From the NCBI RefSeq assembly GCF_021389955.1, contig NZ_CP089980.1, positions 4,087,001 to 4,151,000 on the forward strand: a DNA stretch of 64,000 nt, read 5' to 3'. The stretch is from Fulvivirga maritima. GTDB taxonomy: Bacteria > Bacteroidota > Bacteroidia > Cytophagales > Cyclobacteriaceae. Each line of letters opens with the position of its first letter. Within the stretch, counting starts at the first letter, position 1. Below the pieces are notes generated by a model. It searched no databases. It had not been told where the DNA came from and saw nothing but the letters and a program-made list of their open reading frames with translations. Shown here one piece after another: positions 48,774 through 63,882 of this stretch. Position numbers and translations under genes: made by a program.

Positions 48774-49511
48774 ATGAACAAACAAGAGAAAGAAGAATTA
48801 AAGGAAAAAGCACTTAAACAATTTTTAAAAGGAGAATCTCTATTTGGTAAGGATGGGGCTTTCAGCCCCATGTTGAAGGAGTTCTTAGAAGAAGCTCTGG
48901 AAGCAGAAATGGAGGATCACCTATCCAGTGAAGAAAAAGGACGCTCTCATGGCAATAAGCGCAATGGCAAAGGCCAGAAAACAGTTAAGAGTAGTTTAGG
49001 AGACGTTGAGATAAATACTCCTCAAGATCGTCATAGCAGCTTTGAGCCAAGAATAGTAGAGAAACGCCAGCGTATACTGGCAGACAATCTTGAGAAGCAA
49101 ATAATAGCCATGTATGGGCTAGGTAATAGTTTGAGAGATATTCAAGAACACATCAAGGAGATGTATGACACAAATATATCAACAGAGGTGTTAAGTGATA
49201 TCACAGACCGAGTGATCCCTAAAGTAAAGGAGTGGCAAAATAGGCCATTAGAATCGGTCTATTGTATTGTTTGGCTAGATGCCATGCATTTTAAGGTGCG
49301 AGATGAAGGTAAGGTGAAGCATAAAGCCCTTTATAATATTTTAGGGATCAATAAGCAGGGCAACAAGGAGATATTGGGCATGTACCTATCAGAAAGCGAA
49401 GGAGCTAATTTTTGGCTTCAGATACTTACTGAGCTACAAAATAGAGGCTTGAAAGATATTTTGATAGCCTGCACTGATAACTTGAAAGGTTTTAGTGAAG
49501 CGATACACTCC
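48774..49511 (+). pseudogene. IS256-family transposase, N-terminal part
   Basis: 246 codons up to the insertion point. The mutator-type transposase pattern is clear: MLKEFLEEALEAEMEDHLSS near the start, VKSSLGDVEINTPQDRHSSF, then the first two catalytic Asp in VWLDAMHFKVRDEGK and CTDNLKGFSEAI. After 49511 the frame continues into the IS21 end for 18 more codons (WIQRFELCHPFRLGICQ) before a stop. Confidence 0.9.
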
Positions 49512-49705
49512 TGGATACAACGGTTTGAATTATGCCACCCATTTCGGTTAGGTATATGCCAGTGATTTCGGTTCAAACCGTGCCAGTGTATCTATTTGAT
49601 TACGGTTCGATTTGTGCCACCATATTATAATAATTGATACCTATTACGGTTCGATTTATGCCACTTTAAGAGTTCATTGATTGTTAATATCGCCCCAAAA
49701 AAAGG

Positions 49706-51250
49706 ATGGCGAATAAACTTGACATAATGGACTTAAAACAAATTATCAATCTTCATTTGAGAGGGCTGAGCAATCGGCAAATTGCTTTGACCCTGGGTGT
49801 GAATAGAAACACTGTTAACCATTATTTGCGATCACTTCAGTCAAGCGATCAGCCCATGGAAGCATTGCTACAGTTGGATACTGATGCTTTAGAAGAGCTA
49901 TTTTCGTCTAAGACAACCATAAACAATGATCGTTATGCGGTTTTAATGCGTTTTTTTGAGACCATGCACCCACAGCGTCATCACCCTGGCTTTACCCTTC
50001 AGTACCACTACCAGTTGTATGCTGAGCAAACTCAGGATAGTTACAGTTACACTCAGTTTACCACCCATTATCAGCGTAAGTACAAACAGGCCAAAGGTTC
50101 TATGAAGTTAGAGCACAAGGCAGGAAAAGAGCTTTATGTTGATTTTGCAGGTAAGAAATTAGAAGTAGTAGATCCATCTACAGGAGAAGTAAGCCAGGTA
50201 GAAGTTTTTGTGGCCACACTTCCTTTTAGTCAGTATACTTATGTGGAAGCATGTAAAAGTCAAAAAAGGGAGGACTTTATTCAATGCCTCAATAATGCAC
50301 TCCGCTTCTTTGGAGGAGTACCTGTAGCCATCGTGTCAGACAACCTTAAATCGGCAGTTACCCGATCCAGTAAGTATGAGGCGGTTATTAATAAAACTTT
50401 CAAAGACTTCGCTCATCACTATGGGTGTGCCATAAACCCTACACGTAGTTATGCCCCACAAGATAAAGCACTGGTAGAAAATGCTGTTCAGCTGGCCTAT
50501 CAGCGCATTTATTACCCTATGCGTAAAATGACTTTCTTCTCTATTGAAGCGCTTAATGAAGAGATCCAGCATCATCTTAAGGGCTATAATAATGTGCTTT
50601 TTCAAAGAAAAGAAGCTTCCAGAAAAGAGCTGTTCCAATCCGTAGAATCATCCCTTCTAAAAAGCTTACCCCAAAGTACTTATCAGGTTAAAGAATACGC
50701 CAGAGCCAAGGTACAGAAGATGGGATATGTATACTTCTCGGCTGACAAGACTTATTATAGCGTTCCCTATCGCTACATTGGCTCTCAAACTCAGATACAG
50801 TACACCTCCAAACATGTTGAAGTATACTACAAAAGCCAACGCATTGCGCTGCATAATAGAGTAATGAGTAAGGGTGCTTATATTACTAATAAGAATCACC
50901 TCTCCAGTACACACCGTGCTTATAGCCAATGGAGTCCCCAGTATTTTTCTGATCAGGGAGGTAAAATAGGTGTAAATGTAAAGCTGTTTATGACAGGTTT
51001 ATTCCTGCAGGGTGACTATCCTGAGATTAACTACAAAAGAGCCATGGGCATTTTAATGCTGGCCAAAAACTATGGCCATGAGCGTGTAGATAAAGCCTGC
51101 CTAAGGGCTGTTCATCATGACACATACAGCTATCAAAGGCTCAAAAATATACTCAGTAATAATATGGACGAGCATGAAATAGAACAAGAAAATCATCAAT
51201 CACATATCCCTTCTCACAAAAACATCAGAGGGGCTAACCATTACCAGTAA
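49706..51250 (+). CDS. istA: IS21-family transposase IstA
   Basis: A 514-residue transposase. An N-terminal helix-turn-helix (LRGLSNRQIALTLGVNRNTV) binds the end repeats, and an rve-type core carries the DDE residues in LYVDFAGKKLEV, VAIVSDNLKSAV and DKALVENAVQ. The C-terminal beta domain is also intact. It requires the ATPase IstB encoded 11 bases downstream for target capture. Confidence 0.95.
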   Translation: MANKLDIMDLKQIINLHLRGLSNRQIALTLGVNRNTVNHYLRSLQSSDQPMEALLQLDTDALEELFSSKTTINNDRYAVLMRFFETMHPQRHHPGFTLQYHYQLYAEQTQDSYSYTQFTTHYQRKYKQAKGSMKLEHKAGKELYVDFAGKKLEVVDPSTGEVSQVEVFVATLPFSQYTYVEACKSQKREDFIQCLNNALRFFGGVPVAIVSDNLKSAVTRSSKYEAVINKTFKDFAHHYGCAINPTRSYAPQDKALVENAVQLAYQRIYYPMRKMTFFSIEALNEEIQHHLKGYNNVLFQRKEASRKELFQSVESSLLKSLPQSTYQVKEYARAKVQKMGYVYFSADKTYYSVPYRYIGSQTQIQYTSKHVEVYYKSQRIALHNRVMSKGAYITNKNHLSSTHRAYSQWSPQYFSDQGGKIGVNVKLFMTGLFLQGDYPEINYKRAMGILMLAKNYGHERVDKACLRAVHHDTYSYQRLKNILSNNMDEHEIEQENHQSHIPSHKNIRGANHYQ

Positions 51251-51261
51251 ACAATAATTTT

Positions 51262-51996
51262 ATGAACAATAATCAAACAATAGAAAAACTAAAATCCATG
51301 AGGCTATCTGCGATGGCTGAACTGCACAGACAACAACTCAGCAGCAATGCTTATCAAAAATGCACCCCAGATGAATATCTGGCCTTACTCACTGAAAGTG
51401 AATGGGAAGACAGGCAGAATAAGAAGATTACACGGCTGATGAAAAAGGCCACCTTCAAGCAGCAGGCAGACATGGATGAAATAATCTTCTCTGAAAATAG
51501 GAATCTGGATAAAAACATGTTCAACAGGTTGTCCTCCTTACAGTTCATCAAGCAAAGTGAAAACATCATTATTACAGGTGCTTCAGGAGTAGGCAAAAGC
51601 TTTATGAGTCAGGCCATAGGCAGACAAGCTTGTCTGATGGGCTATAGCACCATCTATCAGGTAACAGCTCGCCTGTTCAACAAAATGAAACTCGCCAAAG
51701 TAGATGGCACCTATATCAAAGAACTTAAAAGAATTACCTCTGCCCAACTCTTAATACTAGATGATTTTGGTTTACAAAGCATGGACAATATTGCAAGAGA
51801 AGTACTTATGGATATTATCGATGATCGTCATGGAAAAACTTCAACTATAATCTCCTCTCAAATACCAGTATCAGCCTGGTATGATATTATTGGTGAAGGC
51901 ACTATTGCTGATGCCATATTAGACAGGCTCGTTAACTCTTCTCATAGAATAGATCTCAAAGGAGAATCTTTGAGAAAAGGTATGTTGAAACATTAA
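51262..51996 (+). CDS. istB: IS21-family helper ATPase IstB
   Basis: A 244-residue AAA+ ATPase of the DnaA/DnaC-related IstB group. Walker A reads ITGASGVGKS, Walker B LLILDDFG, with the sensor-like SSQIPVSAWYDIIGE downstream. It oligomerises on DNA and directs IstA to the target. It appears complete, so the element is probably mobile. Confidence 0.95.
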   Translation: MNNNQTIEKLKSMRLSAMAELHRQQLSSNAYQKCTPDEYLALLTESEWEDRQNKKITRLMKKATFKQQADMDEIIFSENRNLDKNMFNRLSSLQFIKQSENIIITGASGVGKSFMSQAIGRQACLMGYSTIYQVTARLFNKMKLAKVDGTYIKELKRITSAQLLILDDFGLQSMDNIAREVLMDIIDDRHGKTSTIISSQIPVSAWYDIIGEGTIADAILDRLVNSSHRIDLKGESLRKGMLKH

Positions 51997-52101
51997 TATT
52001 TACTAAAATTACGAAACTCTTAAAGTGGCATAGATACACCGAAATCACTGGCATAGTTTGACCGAAACAACTGGCATAGTCCGACCGAAATAGCCAACTC
52101 C

Positions 52102-52551
52102 ATCTACCCACAAACAGATGTTCAACTTTGTGTAGTTCATCAGATTCGAAATAGCTTGAAATATGTAGCCAGTAAAGAACAGAAAGTGTTTATACAAGAT
52201 CTTAAATTAGTTTATCAAGCAGACACAAAAGATCAGGCAGAGACTGCTTTATTAGAACTGGAAGAAAAATGGGGAAAGAAATATCCTGTGGTGATACGAT
52301 CTTGGAATGATAACTGGGAACTACTTAGCACTTATTTCGATTACAGTAAACCCATAAGAAAGTTAATATACACTACAAATCCAGTGGAGGGCTTTCATAG
52401 ACAAGTAAGAAAAGTTACCAAGAGTAAGGGAGCATTTACCAGTGATATGGCCTTGATGAAATTAGTTTACTTAGTTTGCAGACGTATTGAGAAAAAAATG
52501 GACTTCACCTTTGCGGAATTGGGGTTTGACGGTGCAGCAATTAGCCATTAG
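52102..52551 (+). pseudogene. IS256-family transposase, C-terminal part
   Basis: 149 codons starting IYPQTDVQLCVVHQIRNSLK and running through TTNPVEGFHRQVRK with the catalytic Glu to the end (GAAISH). The reading frame is exactly continuous with the N-terminal part once the insertion and one ACTCC copy are removed, so the split is due only to the IS21. Confidence 0.9.
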
Positions 52552-53397: not shown

Positions 53398-53982
53398 TTG
53401 AGTACGTTGAATAATTTATATATCATATCAGGTTGTAACGGCGCTGGAAAAACTACAGCTTCATACACTCTTCTACCAGAAATATTGGACTGCAATGAAT
53501 TTGTGAATGCGGATGAAATTGCGAAAGGGTTATCACCATTTAACCCCGAATCAGAAGCCATGGCAGCAGGAAGATTAATGCTGTCTAAAATTGACAGGTT
53601 GATTAGTAGGAAAAATGATTTTGGTTTCGAAACAACCCTCTCAACAAGAAGTTATAAGAATTTAATAACAAAAGCCCGGGAAAACGGATATCGCTTAACT
53701 CTTCTATTCTTTTGGTTAAGAAATCCTGATTTGGCTGTTAAACGAGTCGAAACCAGAGTTAAAGAAGGTGGGCACAACATTCCAGAAGATGTTATTAGAA
53801 GACGGTATGAGAATGGACTGAAGAATTTCTTTTCGATATTTGAACCACTTGTTGATGAATGGATGTTTATAGATAATTCAGGGGAACCTTATCAAATTGT
53901 TGCGTATAAAAACACAAAAGGAAGCATTATCAATAATCAAGGTTTGTGGGACGATTTAAAAAATAAATACCAAAATAACTAG
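53398..53982 (+). CDS. Zeta-toxin-like P-loop kinase
   Basis: A 194-residue protein with a Walker A at its start (IISGCNGAGKTTASYTLLPE), then EFVNADEIAKGLSPFNPE and FGFETTLSTRSY, the pattern of zeta toxins and related kinases (which phosphorylate UDP-N-acetylglucosamine in characterised members). The start is TTG at 53398 or 53407; no ATG is available ahead of the P-loop. The C-terminal segment RVKEGGHNIPEDVIRRRYENG is also typical. The small gene 1 base downstream is its probable antitoxin. Confidence 0.85.
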   Translation: MSTLNNLYIISGCNGAGKTTASYTLLPEILDCNEFVNADEIAKGLSPFNPESEAMAAGRLMLSKIDRLISRKNDFGFETTLSTRSYKNLITKARENGYRLTLLFFWLRNPDLAVKRVETRVKEGGHNIPEDVIRRRYENGLKNFFSIFEPLVDEWMFIDNSGEPYQIVAYKNTKGSIINNQGLWDDLKNKYQNN

Positions 53983-53983
53983 C

Positions 53984-54148
53984 ATGGACAATACTGATAA
54001 AATTATAGTTGGACTTGAAAAAGCGTATCAAAAACTGATTGAGTTTAAGAAGTATAAGAAAACCCCAATAATTGTTTCCAAAGATGGAAAGGTCGTTGAA
54101 ATGAATCCTGAGGAGATATCTCCCAGCAATACGGTATATAGCAAATAG
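53984..54148 (+). CDS. Putative small antitoxin of the zeta-like toxin (54 residues)
   Basis: A 54-residue basic protein starting MDNTDKIIVGLEKAYQKLIE, 1 base after the toxin stop. Short proteins with the pattern alanine/tyrosine-rich helix then FKKYKKTPIIVSKDGKVVE are common partners of zeta-like toxins in Bacteroidota, more often upstream of the toxin gene. Its last codons (VYSK-stop) come from the repeated motif at 54134-54181, so the original C-terminus may have been altered. Confidence 0.65.
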   Translation: MDNTDKIIVGLEKAYQKLIEFKKYKKTPIIVSKDGKVVEMNPEEISPSNTVYSK

Positions 54149-54205: not shown

Positions 54206-54228
54206 CAAACCTAACTCATCATTAACCC
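54206..54228 (+). repeat. 23-base direct repeat, right copy
   Basis: Matches 52950-52972 at 22 of 23 bases and covers the stop codon region of the 233-residue gene on the minus strand. The two copies bracket 1.25 kb holding the toxin and antitoxin genes. Confidence 0.65.
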
Positions 54229-54923
54229 TCAATTTCGTAAGTCATAATCTCCTCGCCGTTTTCGGTGTAGCACCCTACTTTTGTCAGGTTTCCTTCTGCC
54301 GAATAGGTGAACCTATCCAAGCTTTTACTCTCAGAGCAGTGCTTATTCTCCAGGTCTATATACAGCACTGAGTTCTGAGTCTCTGCAACGGTATCATTGA
54401 GTAGAGTAAAAGTTGAGCGTCGTACAAAATGTTCTGAATAGCTAATAAAGTGCTCGGGCTTGCCTTCCTTCAGCAATAGCACGTTTTTCTTCTCTAAATT
54501 CTCTTCTTTATGATGTTTTTTATACTCTGTGACTCGATTCGGCTCATAGGTATAGACAATCTCATAAGTCACCTGCCCCTGATAAAAGTACTCAATCAGG
54601 CAAACCCTTCCTTCCTTATCCAGATAATGCTTAATAGGCCTATCAGGTTGGGGATCAGCAGAAGCTCCGGTGAGGCGGATAAAATCGGAATAAGGGGCCG
54701 GTTGGTTAAATCGGCGTTCGTAATCTAATGGTTTAATGAAATATTGCTTCTTGGGCAGGTAGCCAAAAGAGGTGCTGGCTTGGCGCGCCGTGACCACCAA
54801 CTGTGCCCATTGAGAAGGATCGATCTGTAGTGCTTCTGTATTTTCCTCAATGATGGCTAAGTATTCTTCAGGTATGGTCTTGCTTCTTCGTAAGCCTGCT
54901 TTTTTGCTGACAATTTTTGCCAA
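54222..54923 (-). CDS. Hypothetical protein, last gene of the Hsp70/J-protein operon
   Basis: A 233-residue soluble protein without recognised domain. The start at 54923 overlaps the previous gene by 67 bases, a long overlap, but there is no later methionine before the conserved-looking region, so it is kept. From residue 60 the chain is a run of beta-hairpins (CLIEYFYQGQVTYEIVYTYEPN, FTYSAEGNLTKVGCYTENGE) like YD/RHS-type or KWG-type repeats. It probably acts with the upstream 311-residue protein and Hsp70. Its 3' end carries the direct repeat that flanks the toxin module. Confidence 0.7.
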   Translation of the reverse strand: MAKIVSKKAGLRRSKTIPEEYLAIIEENTEALQIDPSQWAQLVVTARQASTSFGYLPKKQYFIKPLDYERRFNQPAPYSDFIRLTGASADPQPDRPIKHYLDKEGRVCLIEYFYQGQVTYEIVYTYEPNRVTEYKKHHKEENLEKKNVLLLKEGKPEHFISYSEHFVRRSTFTLLNDTVAETQNSVLYIDLENKHCSESKSLDRFTYSAEGNLTKVGCYTENGEEIMTYEIEG

Positions 54924-55792
54924 ATATTTTCGTCCAGAGTTAGTGGCAGCATTACCTCCAGATCAAAAGCATCATAATCATACGCAGTAATGTGAAAGTC
55001 TTCAGCCAGGTCCAGGTATTCCTCAAATATTGCCTGAAGCTCTGTAGACTTACAGATGTCTATGTAGATTGAACGAGCAAGTGCCATCCCTTCATCTGGC
55101 TCTAATTCTTCATAGATATGCTTATTCAGTACGCTATACTTACTGGTTCCCTTATGGTAAAAATCAAATTCATATTCATTTCGCTCTGAAAAGTACTGTA
55201 AATCGGGGGCATTGTATGAACTAAATGGATCTTCTTCTGCGGCAGCCTCTTCTTCGCTAGCCAAAGCCAGAGTGGGAGGGAAGACCCCTTGTATGTTGTA
55301 TTCAAACAAAGCAAAGGCAATCTTTCCTTTAAATAAAGAATGTTTTTTCTCCAGAGTCATCCTTACCGATTGTATGATCAGGCCTTTTACCTCATTGATC
55401 AATTCTTCGATGTTCTTCTCAAAATTGTCATTGCTGTATATTTCATGACCTTCCGAATCTACAATGGTATGCGGAATATCATCTTTATAATTAACCTGAT
55501 AGTTACGTGTTTCAATCAACTCATGCTCCAGGGAATAGTACTTTATTTCAACATGGCAAGGATGTGCTTCGCTATTTTCCCATTCATAAGTGATGGTCTG
55601 ATATCCGTACTGAGAATATTTCTCATAATGTTTTGCCGCACCTCTTTCATTACGATAGAGATGCTCAATGAAGATAGGTTTTACCTCATCACCATTGACA
55701 TAAACCTCGTAACGCCATGATTCTTCATCTGTATGGAGAAAAACCGAGACGTAGTAGATGTCTTCATCATATTTTAGCTTGTCAAATGCCAT
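54857..55792 (-). CDS. Hypothetical protein of the Hsp70/J-protein operon
   Basis: A 311-residue acidic protein with no signal. The first 110 residues are beta-rich (YYVSVFLHTDEESWRYEVYVNG), the middle is helical (IEELINEVKGLIIQSVRM), and an acidic linker EEEAAAEED lies near residue 180. No family recognised. It starts 15 bases after the hsp70-type gene and overlaps the next gene. As a client, co-chaperone or effector of the divergent Hsp70 it would be new; that is inference from position. Confidence 0.72.
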   Translation of the reverse strand: MAFDKLKYDEDIYYVSVFLHTDEESWRYEVYVNGDEVKPIFIEHLYRNERGAAKHYEKYSQYGYQTITYEWENSEAHPCHVEIKYYSLEHELIETRNYQVNYKDDIPHTIVDSEGHEIYSNDNFEKNIEELINEVKGLIIQSVRMTLEKKHSLFKGKIAFALFEYNIQGVFPPTLALASEEEAAAEEDPFSSYNAPDLQYFSERNEYEFDFYHKGTSKYSVLNKHIYEELEPDEGMALARSIYIDICKSTELQAIFEEYLDLAEDFHITAYDYDAFDLEVMLPLTLDENIWQKLSAKKQAYEEARPYLKNT

Positions 55793-55807
55793 TTTATAAA
55801 GATAGTT

Positions 55808-57520
55808 TTAGGATAGAACATCAATAGTGTGCTGTTCCATTTGTTGTAAGAAATCTTTTAGCTGACGTTGAGCTTTTTTCTTGAGTGGCAAACTGCCGTT
55901 TTCCAGGATGGCCTTGAACTCCATAATAGCATTTTCAATGGAATAAGCATAATGAGAAGGAACTTCCTGATACAGGCGAGAGGCCCAAGCCAGAAGGTGT
56001 TCGTTGGTGCTTTCAAAAGGATTTTCTTTTTTGATCTCTTGTAACTTACTAATCGAACGGGTTACATCCAGATCCTTCATCATCGACTCGTTTTGGATAA
56101 GAACACTTTGTACAGAATGCCCGGTTTCATCAGACTGGATATCTACCAGTAATACGCCATTAATATCATATGTGAAGCGCACTGTAGCGGATTGAGTCTC
56201 TTGCTTAGGCGTTAGCGGTATAGTGAGCGACCCGATTTTAAGGTTTTGTTTTACCTCAAGGCTTTCACCCTGGTAAATATCGAACTGTATAGATGGCTGA
56301 TAGGGTTCAATGGTACTGTATGATTTTTCAAAAGAGCAAGGCACAAAGCTATTACGATCAATGATGGAAGAAAACACGCCACTGGCCCAGCCATGACTCG
56401 TTCTTTTCGATATCTCTATTCCCAGAGAGTGGGGAGCAACATCGGTTAAGATAACTTCTCCAAAAGCTGGATTCTCATTTTTGAGCTCCACGGCTACAGT
56501 AACTCCCACACAAATTGACTCATCGATATTGATTTTCAGTTCGGGCTCTTTTTTAAGTAGTGATTTTATGAAATCCTTATAAATAGCTATACGCGAAGAA
56601 CCTCCAACCAGTATCACTTTTTCAATTTCATCAAGTTTCACTTCGGCATCTCTGATGGTACGGATGATCGTTTTCTTAATTCTGTTGAGGAGTTCCTCAC
56701 TGATTCGCATGAAGGTGAATCGCGAAAGCATGATTTTCTGCTCACCCGCTTCTAATTGAATACGTGTTTCTACTTCTTCATGATCAGATAATGAATGTTT
56801 GAGGTATTCTGCTGCATTACGGATTTTGATACGGTCTTTAGCCGACAAGCTAGATTCTTCAACCTGTATATTCTGCACGATATAGTCTACTATTGCCAGA
56901 GTAAAATCCTCTCCACCAAGTTTTTTATCGCCACTCGAAGAGTTTACACTGAGCACTGTTTCAAAGTAATCCAGCAGCGTGACATCAAAAGTGCCACCAC
57001 CCAGATCGAGCACGAGGTACTGACAGTCCGTTTCTTCCTGAATGCCGTAAGCTAGAGCGGCAGCCGTTGGTTCATTGATGAGGCGAACCACTTCCAGACC
57101 GGCAATTTTAGCTGCGGCCTGGGTAGCCTGTCGTTGCACATTGGTAAAATACGCCGGCACGCTAATCATGCATTGCGTGACTTCCTCTCCTAAATAAGTT
57201 TCTGCATCCTGCTTGAGTGACTTAAGGATATAAGCAGAAAGTTCTTCGGGACGGTATACTTCCTCTCCAAGTAAAAAACTGACATCTTCACCCATATGCC
57301 GTTTAATCAAAGCCACTGTTTGATCTGGGTGAGTGAGCAAACGCTCACGTGCTGATTTACCGACAATCACCTGTCCGGTATCATCTAATCCTACTACTGA
57401 GGGAGTTAATGTATCTCCGTAGCGATTGGGTATCATCACTATTCCATTATCTGGCATCCAGACTGACACGAGGCTATTGGTGGTTCCTAAATCTATTCCG
57501 ATGATCATTTTTCGTTCCAT
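55808..57520 (-). CDS. HscC-like Hsp70-family chaperone
   Basis: A 570-residue Hsp70, shorter than DnaK (638) and close to E. coli HscC (556). ATPase motifs are IGIDLGTTNSLVSVW (phosphate 1), VLDLGGGTFDVTLLDY (phosphate 2), RLINEPTAAALAYG (connect) and VILVGGSSRIAIY (adenosine). The substrate domain contains LTDVAPHSLGIEISKR and FTYDINGVLLVDIQSDE; the long DnaK lid is reduced. The HscC-type segment IIDRNSFVPCSFEKSYSTIEPYQ and the J-protein neighbour support this assignment. It overlaps the DUF1266 gene by 16 bases. Confidence 0.9.
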   Translation of the reverse strand: MERKMIIGIDLGTTNSLVSVWMPDNGIVMIPNRYGDTLTPSVVGLDDTGQVIVGKSARERLLTHPDQTVALIKRHMGEDVSFLLGEEVYRPEELSAYILKSLKQDAETYLGEEVTQCMISVPAYFTNVQRQATQAAAKIAGLEVVRLINEPTAAALAYGIQEETDCQYLVLDLGGGTFDVTLLDYFETVLSVNSSSGDKKLGGEDFTLAIVDYIVQNIQVEESSLSAKDRIKIRNAAEYLKHSLSDHEEVETRIQLEAGEQKIMLSRFTFMRISEELLNRIKKTIIRTIRDAEVKLDEIEKVILVGGSSRIAIYKDFIKSLLKKEPELKINIDESICVGVTVAVELKNENPAFGEVILTDVAPHSLGIEISKRTSHGWASGVFSSIIDRNSFVPCSFEKSYSTIEPYQPSIQFDIYQGESLEVKQNLKIGSLTIPLTPKQETQSATVRFTYDINGVLLVDIQSDETGHSVQSVLIQNESMMKDLDVTRSISKLQEIKKENPFESTNEHLLAWASRLYQEVPSHYAYSIENAIMEFKAILENGSLPLKKKAQRQLKDFLQQMEQHTIDVLS

Positions 57521-58146
57521 ATGTTTAATTGCCAGGGAGAGTTTTTTTGCAACTTTAGCGCAGTGAGTGCTGAGTGGGTCTGACTGAGCGGTAGCTGCAA
57601 ATCATAATTATTATGAGCCAGCCAAAGCCCCTGACCTATATAATATCCGGTGCCGTATTCATTCCAGCTTTGATAGTGATTGCTCAAATCTCTTTTTATT
57701 TCACTCCACATGTTAAAAGCCTCTTCTAATGATAAGTAATCAATGACCACAGCGCACTGTATTCGGAAAGCCAAAGCATCGGCTTCAAAAGCTTTTGGGC
57801 TGGTGGTTTTGAACAAGTTGAGGTTCTCAATAATGAACTTCGATTTCAGGTATTCGGGAGAGTGAAGTGTTAGGCTTTGAAGTAATAGCTGCTGCTGAGA
57901 AAGCGAGAGAAACAATAGTTTATTAATCTGCTCGTCATGCGCAAATTCTCCACTCCATGTGCGTAAAGCGTATCTGAGATCTTCCTGTAATTGTTTAGCA
58001 TCCTTTTCTAAAAAAATAGTGAGCTTATCTTTGGCCGTTGCCAAGACAGTTTCATCTGCATTTTGAGAATTGAACAATATTCCCGAAGGAATATTTTGTT
58101 TCATACACGAGAGGGCATACAAGCCCGTAAAATTATCTGTTGGCAT
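57505..58146 (-). CDS. DUF1266 domain protein (YbeU/YbeR-like)
   Basis: A 213-residue protein. The C-terminal half fits DUF1266: AFRIQCAVVIDYLSLEEAFNMW, then SWNEYGTGYYIGQGLW, equivalent to the A-x-D...GYLSEEEA...SW-x-EF-x-x-YLLGR-x-FW pattern of the family. DUF1266 genes ybeU and ybeR flank djlB, djlC and hscC in E. coli. The N-terminal 110 residues are helical. It overlaps both neighbours (14 and 16 bases), so translation is tightly coupled. Role unknown. Confidence 0.72.
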   Translation of the reverse strand: MPTDNFTGLYALSCMKQNIPSGILFNSQNADETVLATAKDKLTIFLEKDAKQLQEDLRYALRTWSGEFAHDEQINKLLFLSLSQQQLLLQSLTLHSPEYLKSKFIIENLNLFKTTSPKAFEADALAFRIQCAVVIDYLSLEEAFNMWSEIKRDLSNHYQSWNEYGTGYYIGQGLWLAHNNYDLQLPLSQTHSALTALKLQKNSPWQLNIWNEK

Positions 58147-60775
58147 ATAACTTATGATAAAGAATAGGAAATTCTTGCTTTAATTCCATGGTTAAAAATG
58201 GGGCAGACTGATCAGGATGGTTTTGCAGAAATGGAAATAGAAATGCCGCATTTTGTTCATCTTCCAAAAAGCTGGCTTGCGCTACCATGTTTTTGAGTTC
58301 TCGGGGTTCAAACGTAGCATTTTCTAGTTTAGAATATCCTTCCAGGAACATAAAACCGATTCGGCCTGCATTAGTTACATCGTTCCAGATGCCACCCATT
58401 TCATACAGCATGCCACTGTAGGCTAATAGTTGCATGCCTACGAATTTACCTTCAGGAGCACTGGTGTTATAGTTGCTTGCTAGGTAAATTTTAAAATAAA
58501 AGCGGGCTGCTTTTTGATGATCTTTGGCTAGCAGTCGGTAGTAAAGTCCTAGAAATGCCAGTGGTTTTTGCTCGGTCACCTCTTCCTCTACCGGTATAAG
58601 AGTTTCAAAACATTTTTGATGCTCGCCCTGACTGTTGTAGATATCAGCAAGCATTTCTCTTACATCTAACTGGTTCTTTTTAAGATAATCCTTTTCTAAA
58701 GCCTTTTCCAGATACTCTATGGCTACTTCAAAGTTCTTCCCAGAGCAAGCGCAGGCACCAATATCTCTATAGATCCAGTATTTGTCTTCAAATTTATCAA
58801 CGTGTTTAAGATAAAGTTCCAGAGCTTCGTCATACTGTCCATTGTTGTGCCTGGCATAGGCCATATTGATGTCTCTTCGTAGCTCATTAGACATCCCTTT
58901 ATAATAAATGGCCGCTTTATCAGGATCGTTAAGGTTATTCTCATAAATCTGAGCGATGAACCCGATGATGTCGTCATCATTGGTACGTAGTGGTGAGTCT
59001 AGTAAATTATTATAAACAGTTATGGCTTCTTTAAAAAGCTCTTGCTTTACCAAACATTTGGCTTCTGAAGTGTAAAGAGCAATATGGTAGGGAAACAGTG
59101 TATGCATTTTGTCAAACAAAACTGACAACTGTGGCCATGAACGAATCAGGTAATTCTTTTCGGCAGTACGCCCCAGGTTCTTGAGGAAATAGAGTAAGAT
59201 TTCCGGTGATAGGGGATAGCTGAGAAATAGAGAGGTGTAGGCATATATGTCTTCGTGTTTACCTCTGCGTTCCAGGTATTCAAAGAATCGTAAAAAGACG
59301 CTATTTAATTCTCCAAGAGTAACAGAAGACCTAAAAGCCAGATCCATGGCCTTCATAGCCTCCTCTTCATTTTCTTGGTGTATGGCTTGCAATACCTTCC
59401 ATTGATGCTGAAACGCTTCCTTTTCTTCTAATTCAGGAGCATCTTTTAGCACCTGTTCTGTCTCCTCTAATAAGTTGTTTTTCAGTAGAATTTCTATGAG
59501 CTGCTTCAGGTCATCAGAATCCATCACTTCTAAGTAGCTCTGACGATTTTTACTTTGCAGGTAATCAATAATGATTTGCTCTTCGCAAATTCTTATCAGG
59601 TGAGTAATGCCCAGGTGTGCAGGATTTTGCTCCGAGAAAGTTTTTGCCAGATCCAGGTTGTAATACAGGTGGCTACCCAAGTGAACAGAACAATGTATGA
59701 TACTCATATAGAGGTCAGAATCGGTCATATGCGTTTCATACAGACGCTGATAGATGTCAAGCGCCGCTTCATACTGTCCGGTGCGCGCCAGCAAATCGGC
59801 TTTATATTTTTCTAATTCCCATGACTGTTTTAGTAATTCTGATGAGATTGAGTTAGCAAAAGCCAGTGCTTTTTCTGGCTGTTGGAGTTTATCCAGCAGC
59901 GTTAGTTTTACCCTGTAATAGATAGAAACCTCAGGATGCTTTTTTGGCAGTTCATCAGCATAAGCAAGCGCAGCTGCCCAGTTTTTTTCCAGAATATGAA
60001 AATAGATCTGCCGCTGATGAGTGATGATTCTACGGTTTTGAAGAACAGATAAGCCAGTCTGGATGATCCTGAACAGGGGATCTGTAGTGAAATTATAGGC
60101 CGCTCTTAGGTTTTTAATTAATTCTTCATACTTACTTTTAAAAGTGGAGATATCCCAGGAATTGACATCCACCGCCGGGTAGTTCTCAAAATACATATCC
60201 CAAAACTCCTTTGGTAAATCCGCCCGAGTCATGAGCATACTGGTCAACTTGCTTAGCTGCCGATCGTCTAGAATACTCATTTCGAAAGGAATTGACCCAA
60301 ATACTTCTTTCCAACCGGCGTCCGATTGCTTGCTAAGTGTATAGTCAACATGAATTAAAAAGGCATTGAGTGCGGCATCATCACCCTTTTGTTCTCTGGT
60401 ATATTGGAGGAGTTGGCCCAGCTCCTGATCCGAGAAAGTATCAGCCTTGCTTTCATGGTCATCCCACACATCTCTAAAGTAAGCTTTATACATATCCTCC
60501 AGTGGATGTGTTTCTTTGGGTGCCTCTTCATGAAATTCAACCTGAACCTCTTGCGGTTGCTCAAAGGTATTTACCAGACTCATGTCTATGGATTGCTCAG
60601 AGACTTCGCTAAGAGATTTAGCTATTTTTAAGGCTTCGTTAAAAGCCATTCTCAGCTGCTGATAACCTTCACGGTCTTTTTCAGGATGGTGTAGCGGTAG
60701 CAGGCGAGCATACGTCTTTTTTATAGCTTTCTGGTCGCTGGTTTTTTGGATATTGAGCGTCTGCCAACAATTCAT
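58133..60775 (-). CDS. DjlB/DjlC-like J-domain protein with long TPR array
   Basis: An 880-residue protein. The first 50 residues are a J domain: MNCWQTLNIQKTSDQKAIKK, TYARLLPLHHPEKD and REGYQQLRMAFNEAL. The usual His-Pro-Asp is His-Pro-Glu, as in DjlB/DjlC-type proteins (x-P-E-x-D-x-EGFQ-x-LR-x-A). The remainder is helical and dominated by TPR/SEL1-like repeats (QYEAALDIYQRLYE, KNFEVAIEYLEKALE, PDKAAIYYKGMSN). It should recruit the Hsp70 of the same operon to clients bound by the TPR array. First gene of the operon. E. coli DjlB is only about 475 residues, so this array is far longer. Confidence 0.85.
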   Translation of the reverse strand: MNCWQTLNIQKTSDQKAIKKTYARLLPLHHPEKDREGYQQLRMAFNEALKIAKSLSEVSEQSIDMSLVNTFEQPQEVQVEFHEEAPKETHPLEDMYKAYFRDVWDDHESKADTFSDQELGQLLQYTREQKGDDAALNAFLIHVDYTLSKQSDAGWKEVFGSIPFEMSILDDRQLSKLTSMLMTRADLPKEFWDMYFENYPAVDVNSWDISTFKSKYEELIKNLRAAYNFTTDPLFRIIQTGLSVLQNRRIITHQRQIYFHILEKNWAAALAYADELPKKHPEVSIYYRVKLTLLDKLQQPEKALAFANSISSELLKQSWELEKYKADLLARTGQYEAALDIYQRLYETHMTDSDLYMSIIHCSVHLGSHLYYNLDLAKTFSEQNPAHLGITHLIRICEEQIIIDYLQSKNRQSYLEVMDSDDLKQLIEILLKNNLLEETEQVLKDAPELEEKEAFQHQWKVLQAIHQENEEEAMKAMDLAFRSSVTLGELNSVFLRFFEYLERRGKHEDIYAYTSLFLSYPLSPEILLYFLKNLGRTAEKNYLIRSWPQLSVLFDKMHTLFPYHIALYTSEAKCLVKQELFKEAITVYNNLLDSPLRTNDDDIIGFIAQIYENNLNDPDKAAIYYKGMSNELRRDINMAYARHNNGQYDEALELYLKHVDKFEDKYWIYRDIGACACSGKNFEVAIEYLEKALEKDYLKKNQLDVREMLADIYNSQGEHQKCFETLIPVEEEVTEQKPLAFLGLYYRLLAKDHQKAARFYFKIYLASNYNTSAPEGKFVGMQLLAYSGMLYEMGGIWNDVTNAGRIGFMFLEGYSKLENATFEPRELKNMVAQASFLEDEQNAAFLFPFLQNHPDQSAPFLTMELKQEFPILYHKLYANR

Positions 60776-63338: not shown

Positions 63339-63882
63339 ATGAATTTTGAAGAATTAGAGCGTAAAATAGAAGCTGCCACTAAAAAGGCATTTATAGAAAT
63401 ATATGATCAGCACCAAGACGAAGGCATATATGGTTTTGCCTTGTACAGTGATGGTGGGGCTATGACTGTTTGTCCTTCTGCAAATACCCAGGATTTTTTG
63501 GAAGATTTGGATGACGAGGAAAAGGAAGATCTCGCGTTTTATAAGTTTGAGCCAGCTGAATGGAAATATGAAATGGTGGGAGCAGATGAAGCGTTTAATG
63601 ATATTTCTAAAGAATTAAGAACGGAGTTGGGTGAAAACTGGTTTGAAGATGAGGCAACTTTTGTGTTTTAGAAAGAGCCTTTTTAGCACTTGTATTAATG
63701 TTTTGAAAAAGCTTAAGGGAGAGAATTTCTTTAAAAACATAACAGGTGAGGAGGTGTTTTTAACTTTCACCGTTTCTGATTATGAGTTTGAAAATAAGGA
63801 AGTTGAGGATATTATTATTCAATTAAACGATAATGATTATCAAACGGAATATCTGGAATGGATGAAAAGTTGGGCAGATTAA
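63339..63882 (+). pseudogene. DUF4303 protein, broken by a one-base frameshift
   Basis: The frame 63339-63671 stops at TAG, but deleting one T from the TTTT run at 63666-63669 joins it to the second frame (63631-63882) as TFVFRKSLFSTCINVLKKLKGENFF. The joined 180-residue product matches DUF4303: an N-terminal FEELERKIEAATKKAFIEIY helix with IYGFALYSDGGAMTVCPSANT, and a C-terminal EEVFLTFTVSDYEFENKEVE. DUF4303 proteins are often of the immunity type. Either a natural pseudogene or a sequencing error. Confidence 0.72.

What the first reader, a model, noticed from the sequence alone, without database searches (positions are those of the whole stretch)
54222..60775. A Bacteroidota version of the HscC / J-protein / DUF1266 chaperone cluster, with two new partner genes
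Seen: five overlapping or tightly spaced minus-strand genes encoding a J-domain/TPR protein (880 residues), a DUF1266 protein, an HscC-length Hsp70 with a reduced lid, and two unrecognised proteins. Established: E. coli groups djlB, djlC, DUF1266 genes (ybeU, ybeR) and hscC in one region, and HscC works with those specialised J-proteins, not DnaJ; the biological role is unsettled. Inference: the set is a portable dedicated chaperone machine and the 311- and 233-residue proteins are its clients or effectors. The adjacent toxin module and IS elements place it in accessory DNA.
Basis: partly seen in the sequence, partly recalled or inferred. Interest (0 to 1): 0.78.

Follow-up and report, generated by a model that had tools for sequence, protein, structure and literature searches.

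The report
HscC chaperone trio in Bacteroidota
Three overlapping genes encode a specialised Hsp70 chaperone, its own J-protein helper and a small partner protein, a set known from E. coli but rarely found in this phylum, while the two extra genes beside it look like pieces of one broken neighbour.

Summary
The core is real. J880 (58133-60775), a DUF1266 protein (57505-58146) and a 570-residue Hsp70 (55808-57520) form an overlapping minus-strand operon. The Hsp70 is HscC: it has the four discriminating HscC marks tested and falls in a 26-row HscC group apart from DnaK and HscA. The J-domain carries HPE, as in E. coli DjlB/DjlC. The set recurs: of 78 fetched J-protein loci, 76 hold an HscC-type Hsp70 and 65 a DUF1266 gene, and a same-genus genome, G001, has its own HscC/J-protein/DUF1266 operon. 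What differs: the J-proteins of the window and G001 show no membrane segment, whereas 73 of 78 fetched ones do. The 311- and 233-residue ORFs are not supported as partners: a paralogue carries both in one frame, the window copy is truncated and frame-shifted, and the family is in 0 of 78 J-protein loci and 0 of 2 other Bacteroidota HscC loci. A lead: elsewhere DUF1266 pairs with ~840-residue TPR proteins related to the J-protein N-terminal region but lacking HPD/HPE, hinting that DUF1266 belongs with the J-protein body. Client and purpose are unknown.

The parts
58133..60775 (-). J880: J-domain (HPE motif) plus TPR protein, 880 aa, no hydrophobic segment; HscC-type J-protein
   Evidence: PF00226 1.6e-6 and TPR families; J-domain 44% identical to DjlB, 38% to DjlC, 23% to DnaJ; highest 19-residue Kyte-Doolittle mean 1.01
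57505..58146 (-). DUF1266 protein, 213 aa; overlaps J880 by 14 nt and the Hsp70 gene by 16 nt
   Evidence: PF06889 8.3e-15, 55.9 bits against a cut-off of 27; all-helical model, mean pLDDT 72
55808..57520 (-). HscC-type Hsp70, 570 aa
   Evidence: PF00012 1.4e-120; HscC deletions, insertion and linker; HscC group in the tree
54857..55804 (-). Remnant, first piece (311-aa ORF 54857-55792): truncated copy of a 735-739 aa / 385-393 aa Bacteroidota family; homology starts directly after the Hsp70 stop. Judged not to be part of the machine.
   Evidence: 52% over residues 23-305 to the paralogue L007; tblastn of relatives against the window; 0 of 78 and 0 of 2 loci
54222..54923 (-). Remnant, second piece (233-aa ORF, TTG start, in another frame). 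Judged not to be a separate gene.
   Evidence: 38% over residues 3-228 to the same 537-aa paralogue

Best explanation
The operon encodes a dedicated HscC-type Hsp70 machine. Inferred mechanism: the HPE J-domain of J880 docks on ATP-bound HscC and triggers hydrolysis; the TPR body of J880 chooses the client and hands it to HscC; nucleotide release needs no GrpE, because the GrpE loop is shortened; the DUF1266 protein binds the J-protein body as adaptor or regulator. E. coli DjlB/DjlC sit in the membrane; this J-protein appears soluble, so the machine probably works in the cytosol, or on a membrane client without an anchor of its own. The downstream 311/233 ORFs are a decayed neighbour gene. Shown here: family identity, gene order, motif, lack of a hydrophobic segment, recurrence of the set. 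Inferred: the ATPase coupling (by analogy with E. coli HscC-DjlC), the DUF1266-J-protein contact, the location, the client.
For: HscC marks in the window and in 75 Hsp70s from the fetched loci, against 8 DnaKs; tree; HPE J-domain closest to DjlB and the Duffyella J-protein; HscC in 76 of 78, DUF1266 in 65 of 78, both in 64 of 78 fetched J-protein loci; G001 operon HscC-J-DUF1266; overlapping genes in the window; E. coli ybeR-djlB and ybeU-djlC overlap by 4 nt beside hscC; ATPase-site residues conserved at the DnaK positions checked (their role is recalled). [quoted passage not shown] HscC lacks the GrpE signature. PMC13254874 (passages): HPE seems the only tolerated replacement of HPD.
Against: No biochemical data for this organism. 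DUF1266 has no solved relative and no demonstrated contact with the J-protein; 13 of 78 fetched J-protein loci lack a DUF1266 gene, so it is not obligatory. G995, another HscC/J pair in the family, has a hydrophobic segment, so a soluble J-protein is not general in Bacteroidota. The hydropathy test is crude and does not exclude peripheral membrane binding.
Confidence: 0.7

Rival explanations
1. The machine works at the membrane, as proposed for E. coli HscC; J880 is tethered by a partner instead of by its own anchor.
For: 73 of 78 fetched J-proteins have a strong hydrophobic segment; DUF805 is found in 5 of 8 long J-proteins scanned. [quoted passage not shown]
Against: J880 and the G001 J-protein have no such segment, nor have three fetched Bacillota J-proteins of 849-1243 aa (L098, L106, L107).
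Confidence: 0.18
2. All five ORFs make one machine, with the 311- and 233-residue proteins as its clients or effectors, the two perhaps joined by programmed frameshifting.
For: They follow the Hsp70 gene after 15 nt on the same strand. In one other genome, G078, a 390-aa member of the family lies upstream of a TPR/DUF1266 pair, with about 780 nt and a 101-aa ORF between.
Against: One-frame paralogue; truncation directly at the Hsp70 stop and no missing N-terminal part found elsewhere in the window; 0 of 78, 0 of 2 and 1 of 17 loci, 0 of 6 in reverse. The paralogue is itself split near its start.
Confidence: 0.06
3. HscC acts mainly as a brake on the housekeeping sigma factor, as reported for over-expressed E. 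coli HscC, with J880 and DUF1266 setting when it binds.
For: PMC3861889 (passages): over-expressed HscC inhibits growth and lowers sigma70-dependent promoter activity, and sigma70 co-elutes with it.
Against: That effect is described for over-expression and for E. coli; nothing in the window points to a sigma factor.
Confidence: 0.05
4. The Hsp70 is an ordinary DnaK copy and the neighbourhood is accidental.
For: Whole-length identity hardly separates HscC (37%) from DnaK (33.5%).
Confidence: 0.01

Closest known systems
E. coli K-12 hscC with ybeR-djlB and ybeU-djlC (NC_000913)
   Same: HscC-type Hsp70, HPE J-domain protein, DUF1266 gene overlapping the J-protein gene, all in one neighbourhood
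   Different: Window: all three genes in one direction, one J-protein and one DUF1266 instead of two, J-protein of 880 aa with TPRs and no hydrophobic segment (DjlB/DjlC are 475/483 aa with one near the C-terminus); DUF1266 only 22-23% identical
Pseudomonas and Pectobacterium type: DUF1266 then a ~880-910 aa J-protein, HscC convergent (e.g. L049, L113)
   Same: Length of the J-protein, HPE, DUF1266 overlapping or touching it, HscC next door
   Different: Those J-proteins end in a hydrophobic region, with DUF805 in 5 of the 8 long J-proteins scanned; HscC is on the opposite strand
Duffyella/Pantoea-type HscC/J pair with RPD motif (L045, L068)
   Same: HscC and J-protein genes overlap in one direction
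   Different: RPD instead of HPE, no DUF1266 gene found in the flanks, membrane segment
G001 operon, same genus (L155)
   Same: HscC, soluble TPR J-protein and DUF1266 in one direction
   Different: Order HscC-J-DUF1266, RPD motif, 705-aa J-protein, no 311/233 family in the locus
Bacteroidota TPR/DUF1266 pairs without Hsp70 (L033, L034, L164)
   Same: DUF1266 directly after a large soluble TPR protein whose N-terminal region aligns with that of the J-proteins
   Different: No HPD/HPE motif, no Pfam DnaJ match in the two scanned, no Hsp70 gene in the fetched locus

Membership tests
HscC (Hsp70 subfamily) | Length 550-580 aa (PMC8215388, passages) | tested here: met
   570 aa
HscC (Hsp70 subfamily) | Deletion at DnaK 76-101 | tested here: met
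   3 residues left, as in 75 of 75 locus Hsp70s; 24-26 in 8 DnaKs and 24 in HscA. The review notes similar deletions in some DnaKs of other phyla; the organism's own DnaK keeps 24.
HscC (Hsp70 subfamily) | GrpE loop shortened | tested here: met
   10 residues over DnaK 285-300, as in 75 of 75; 16 in 8 of 8 DnaKs
HscC (Hsp70 subfamily) | Insertion of 4-8 residues in loop L1,2 | tested here: met
   18 residues over DnaK 401-410 where 8 of 8 DnaKs have 10; 14-19 in the 75
HscC (Hsp70 subfamily) | Shortened helix B in the lid | tested here: met
   30 residues over DnaK 520-560, as in 74 of 75 (one row is cut short); 41 in 8 of 8 DnaKs
HscC (Hsp70 subfamily) | Shortened loop around DnaK D211 | tested here: inconclusive
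   8 residues in the window and in 75 of 75, but also in 7 of 8 DnaKs, so it does not discriminate
HscC (Hsp70 subfamily) | Groups with HscC and not with DnaK/HscA in a tree | tested here: met
   26-row group 95/98; DnaK plus HscA 96/98; the window and G001 have long branches
HscC (Hsp70 subfamily) | ATPase stimulated by its own J-protein and not by DnaJ | not testable with these tools
   Needs purified proteins
DjlB/DjlC-type J-protein | N-terminal J-domain with HPE, closest to DjlB/DjlC | tested here: met
   HPE; 43.8% and 37.5% identity, 22.6% to DnaJ; tblastn of J880 against plasmids hits djlB-type genes in 9 of 9 records
DjlB/DjlC-type J-protein | hscC gene nearby | tested here: met
   HscC two genes downstream in the same operon
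DjlB/DjlC-type J-protein | Membrane anchor (tail anchor in DjlB/DjlC) | tested here: not met
   Highest 19-residue hydropathy mean 1.01 against 2.39 and 1.99 in DjlB and DjlC. So it is filed as a soluble variant of HscC-type J-proteins and not as DjlB or DjlC.
DUF1266 (PF06889) | Match over the curated cut-off | tested here: met
   55.9 bits against 27; covers profile 58-175 of 175
DnaK | Full GrpE loop, VLLLD linker, full lid | tested here: not met
   NCBIfam DnaK models score 405.5 against a cut-off of 648 and 396.5 against 822.55
Part of the chaperone set (311/233 ORFs) | Recurrent neighbourhood with HscC, its J-protein or DUF1266 | tested here: not met
   0 of 78, 0 of 2 and 1 of 17 loci; 0 of 6 in the reverse direction

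The most novel reading that the evidence does not exclude
DUF1266 is a standing partner of a J-protein 'body' and not of the Hsp70 itself. The pair is the old unit: tied to the membrane in Proteobacteria, a soluble TPR scaffold in some Bacteroidota, and in still others (L033, L034, L164) at work without Hsp70, with an N-terminus that has no HPD/HPE. The window operon would be the soluble, Hsp70-coupled form and a handle on what HscC machines do.
Probability: 0.3. Interest if true: 0.65.

Novelty: new variant of a known kind. Interest (0 to 1): 0.45.

Why it matters
HscC is an E. coli Hsp70 whose mechanism of action is described as unknown, and the proposed membrane role leans on its J-proteins being anchored (PMC8215388, passages). 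A version with a soluble J-protein and with DUF1266 kept separates what recurs (HscC, J-protein, often DUF1266) from what is optional (the anchor). DUF1266, named in 3 papers of the held library (listing only), becomes an obvious protein to test for binding to the J-protein. It also shows that the two neighbouring ORFs should not be pursued as partners.

Tried and rejected
Rejected: the 311/233 ORFs as partners. Programmed frameshifting between them was considered: the resemblance to the paralogue passes from one ORF to the other within the overlap, which suits a broken gene; decay and an assembly error cannot be told apart without reads. A DUF4303-like domain in the 311 protein was suspected and not supported (hhalign probability 0.1; Pfam at E<=10 gave two chance-level matches for one of five members). 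An internal repeat (the 233 ORF resembling the N half of the 311 family) is weak (probability 29; blastp 1.8e-5 to L034). The idea that the ~840-aa TPR proteins carry a degenerate J-domain is only partly borne out: JDP N-termini against theirs give probability 94.3, but most of the signal lies after the J-domain (tail alone 87.9; J alone 12.1 and 5.3; the window and G001 proteins alone against them 1.2); controls: reversed 0.1, best of 30 column shuffles 0.6, DUF1266 2.5, the other TPR group 0.3, Hsp70 0.1 and 0.2.

Led nowhere: PADLOC (generic TPR matches and one weak match), PHROGs (weak matches of unknown function), sequence search of solved structures with DUF1266 and with the 311 family (best E 0.18 and 0.53), fold search of the DUF1266 model (0 matches at E<=0.001), single-sequence model of the 311 protein (mean pLDDT 42, not used), viral contigs with the 311 family and with the J-domain (no relatives), plasmids with DUF1266 (no match), tRNA genes in the window (0), a Bacteroidota-type promoter upstream of J880 (only a -7-like box 155 nt upstream, consensus recalled), the flank gene DUF4349 in the genus (9 of 15 genomes, not followed to an empty site).
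Full report
OBSERVATION. Pfam supports J-domain plus TPR (880 aa), DUF1266 (213 aa) and Hsp70 (570 aa), and gives nothing over a cut-off for the 311- and 233-aa ORFs. J880/DUF1266 and DUF1266/Hsp70 overlap by 14 and 16 nt, and the 311-aa ORF starts 15 nt after the Hsp70 gene. NCBIfam scores the Hsp70 far below its DnaK and HscA cut-offs (405.5 against 648; 365.6 against 708.55).

THE HSP70 IS HscC. E. coli HscC, DnaK and HscA were read from NC_000913. Identity alone is little help (37% to HscC, 33.5% to DnaK). The marks listed for HscC in PMC8215388 (passages) do help. On one alignment the window protein and 75 of 75 Hsp70s from the fetched J-protein loci keep 3 residues over DnaK 76-101, where 8 DnaKs (E. 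coli, the organism's own, six of the genus) keep 24-26. At the GrpE loop they keep 10 where the DnaKs keep 16. The L1,2 stretch is longer (18 in the window, 14-19 in the 75, 10 in the DnaKs). Over DnaK 520-560 the window and 74 of 75 keep 30 where the DnaKs keep 41 (the other row is cut short). The loop at D211 does not discriminate: 7 of 8 DnaKs have the short form too. The linker reads VILTD in the window and in E. coli HscC and VLLLD in 8 of 8 DnaKs. A tree of 36 Hsp70s puts the window in a 26-row HscC group (95/98) apart from DnaK and HscA (96/98). Its sister there is the G001 protein (87/90), but both have long branches and the program warns that such a join may be false. The organism has an ordinary 652-aa DnaK elsewhere (L157).

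THE J-PROTEIN. The motif is HPE, as in DjlB and DjlC; the J-domain is 44% and 38% identical to these, 45% to that of Duffyella and 23% to DnaJ. PMC13254874 (passages) says that HPE seems the only tolerated replacement of HPD and names DjlB/DjlC with HscC. In 78 J-protein loci fetched from genome contigs with a J-domain profile the motif is HPE in 67, RPD in 7, SPE in 2, NPE in 1; one (L116) was not parsed by the script and reads RPD by eye. HscC-type Hsp70 genes lie in the flanks of 76 of 78, DUF1266 genes of 65 of 78, both of 64 of 78; within 300 nt the counts are 70 and 65 of 78. J-proteins of 850 aa or more are common there (62 of 78), so the length of J880 is not unusual.

WHAT DIFFERS. 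73 of 78 fetched J-proteins have a hydrophobic segment (Kyte-Doolittle mean of 1.6 or more over 19 residues), and DUF805 is found in 5 of 8 long J-proteins scanned, the window and G001 being among the 8. J880 has none (highest 1.01), nor has the 705-aa J-protein of G001 (1.2). The five exceptions among the 78 are three Bacillota J-proteins of 849-1243 aa (L098, L106, L107), one ORF cut short (L125) and one overlong ORF (L095). G995, a third HscC/J pair in the family, does have a hydrophobic segment, so the soluble form is not general in Bacteroidota. E. coli DjlB and DjlC are reported as tail-anchored, and a membrane role for HscC was argued from this (PMC8215388, passages). The window suggests that the anchor is not a fixed part of the machine.

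DISTRIBUTION. The J-domain profile rang in 1 of 291 genomes drawn from the order (self; E<=1e-8) and 3 of 191 drawn from the family (self, G995, and G595, which reads as an ordinary DnaJ-like protein, 47% identical to DnaJ over 68 residues; E<=1e-6). J880 as a whole rang in 1 of 296 of the phylum (self), though only up to three candidates a genome were scored there. G001, of the same genus, was found through its Hsp70: locus L155 reads HscC (564 aa), J-protein (705 aa, RPDEDPEGF), DUF1266 (224 aa), all on one strand, overlapping by 1 nt and 14 nt apart. DUF1266 is rare: 12 of 395 genomes of the phylum, 14 of 179 in the family of G078 with 13 over the cut-off, 4 of 15 chosen relatives. The three core genes have 40-43% G+C against 31-35% for the three flanking genes measured; the window as a whole ranges from 32 to 44%, so this is weak support for accessory DNA.

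DUF1266 AND BIG TPR PROTEINS. None of 17 other Bacteroidota DUF1266 loci holds an Hsp70 gene. In three (L033, L034, L164) DUF1266 follows an 831-854 aa protein, TPR by Pfam in the two scanned. In five (L039 from this same genome, L042, L165, L166, L167) it lies between a 1264-1304 aa protein (weak zinc-ribbon match, below the cut-off, in the two scanned) and a 710-756 aa protein (TPR in the one scanned). In the remaining nine no such partner was noted. The N-terminal 150 residues of the first group align with the N-terminal 190 of 71 J-proteins (hhalign probability 94.3, E 1e-7). Controls: reversed 0.1, best of 30 column shuffles 0.6, second group 0.3. Most of the signal lies behind the J-domain (87.9 without it); the J part alone is weak (12.1 and 5.3); there is no HPD/HPE; and the window and G001 proteins alone do not show it (1.2). 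I read this as kinship of the J-protein body, with the working J-domain lost or never present. It suggests that DUF1266 goes with the J-protein body. The DUF1266 model is all-helical (mean pLDDT 72) and has no solved match at E<=0.001, so it gives no mechanism.

THE 311 AND 233 ORFs. The same genome has a second copy at 6.22 Mb (L007) in which both lie in one 537-aa ORF (52% over residues 23-305, 38% over 3-228). Relatives of 735 and 739 aa (L008, L158) and of 385-393 aa (L009, L010, L011, L034) show that the window copy lacks its N-terminal part: homology begins right after the Hsp70 stop codon, and the missing part was not found elsewhere in the window. The L007 copy is itself split near its start. 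The family is in 5 of 58 relatives, 2 of 296 of the phylum and 2 of 179 of the family of G078, eight loci in all. It occurs in 0 of 78 J-protein loci, 0 of 2 other Bacteroidota HscC loci and 1 of 17 DUF1266 loci, and 0 of 6 further loci of the family hold DUF1266 or Hsp70. Against my reading: in that one case, G078, a 390-aa member lies about 780 nt from a TPR/DUF1266 pair (L034). With the window that makes 2 of 8 loci beside a DUF1266 set, which looks more than chance given how rare both are, so a loose link cannot be excluded.

LITERATURE. Papers naming DUF1266 in the held library: 3 (listing). HscC with Bacteroidetes and J-domain: 1 paper, PMC11019930, whose passages name each only in passing. 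J-domain with DUF805: 0. HscC with DjlB, DjlC or DUF1266: 10 papers hold at least two of the terms, DjlB/DjlC having another meaning in at least one. Barriot et al. 2020, cited in PMC8215388 as the wide survey of J-proteins, was not read; a DOI tried from memory was not held. It may already list Bacteroidota HscC. So I claim 'not found in these searches', not 'never described'.

VERDICT. A correct and well-supported identification of a known kind of machine in a phylum where it is rarely found, with a soluble J-protein and a useful lead on DUF1266. The 'two new partner genes' fall away.

Noticed in passing
48774-52551: An IS21-type gene pair (49706-51250 with integrase core, 51262-51996 IstB) lies between the N- and C-terminal parts of a Mutator-type transposase gene (48774-49565 and 52156-52551), as if inserted into it.
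   Followed up: partly
53398-54148: Zeta-toxin-like P-loop ORF (194 aa, PF06414) followed directly by a 54-aa ORF that might be its small partner; between the transposase remnant and the 233-aa ORF.
   Followed up: no
L039 (own genome, 1.83 Mb), L042, L165, L166, L167: Recurrent set of a ~1300-aa protein, DUF1266 and a 710-756 aa protein in five loci, with a ~192-197 aa gene beside it in the five; no Hsp70 gene. Looks like an undescribed DUF1266 context.
   Followed up: partly
L098, L106, L107: Bacillota HscC loci with soluble J-proteins of 849-1243 aa and NPE, SPE or HPE motifs, without a DUF1266 gene in the flanks.
   Followed up: partly
L147, L148, L150, L152: Another Hsp70-like type in the genus: ORFs of 832-852 aa with an Hsp70 N-terminal domain match (E 1e-26 to 1e-38) and a long remainder.
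   Followed up: no
63339-63671: DUF4303 protein of 110 aa (PF14136, 8.4e-17) a little beyond the cluster; the held library has no paper that names the family.
   Followed up: no
L007:9647-11543: The second copy of the 311/233 family in the same genome also looks split, near its start, so both copies in this genome appear to be decaying.
   Followed up: partly
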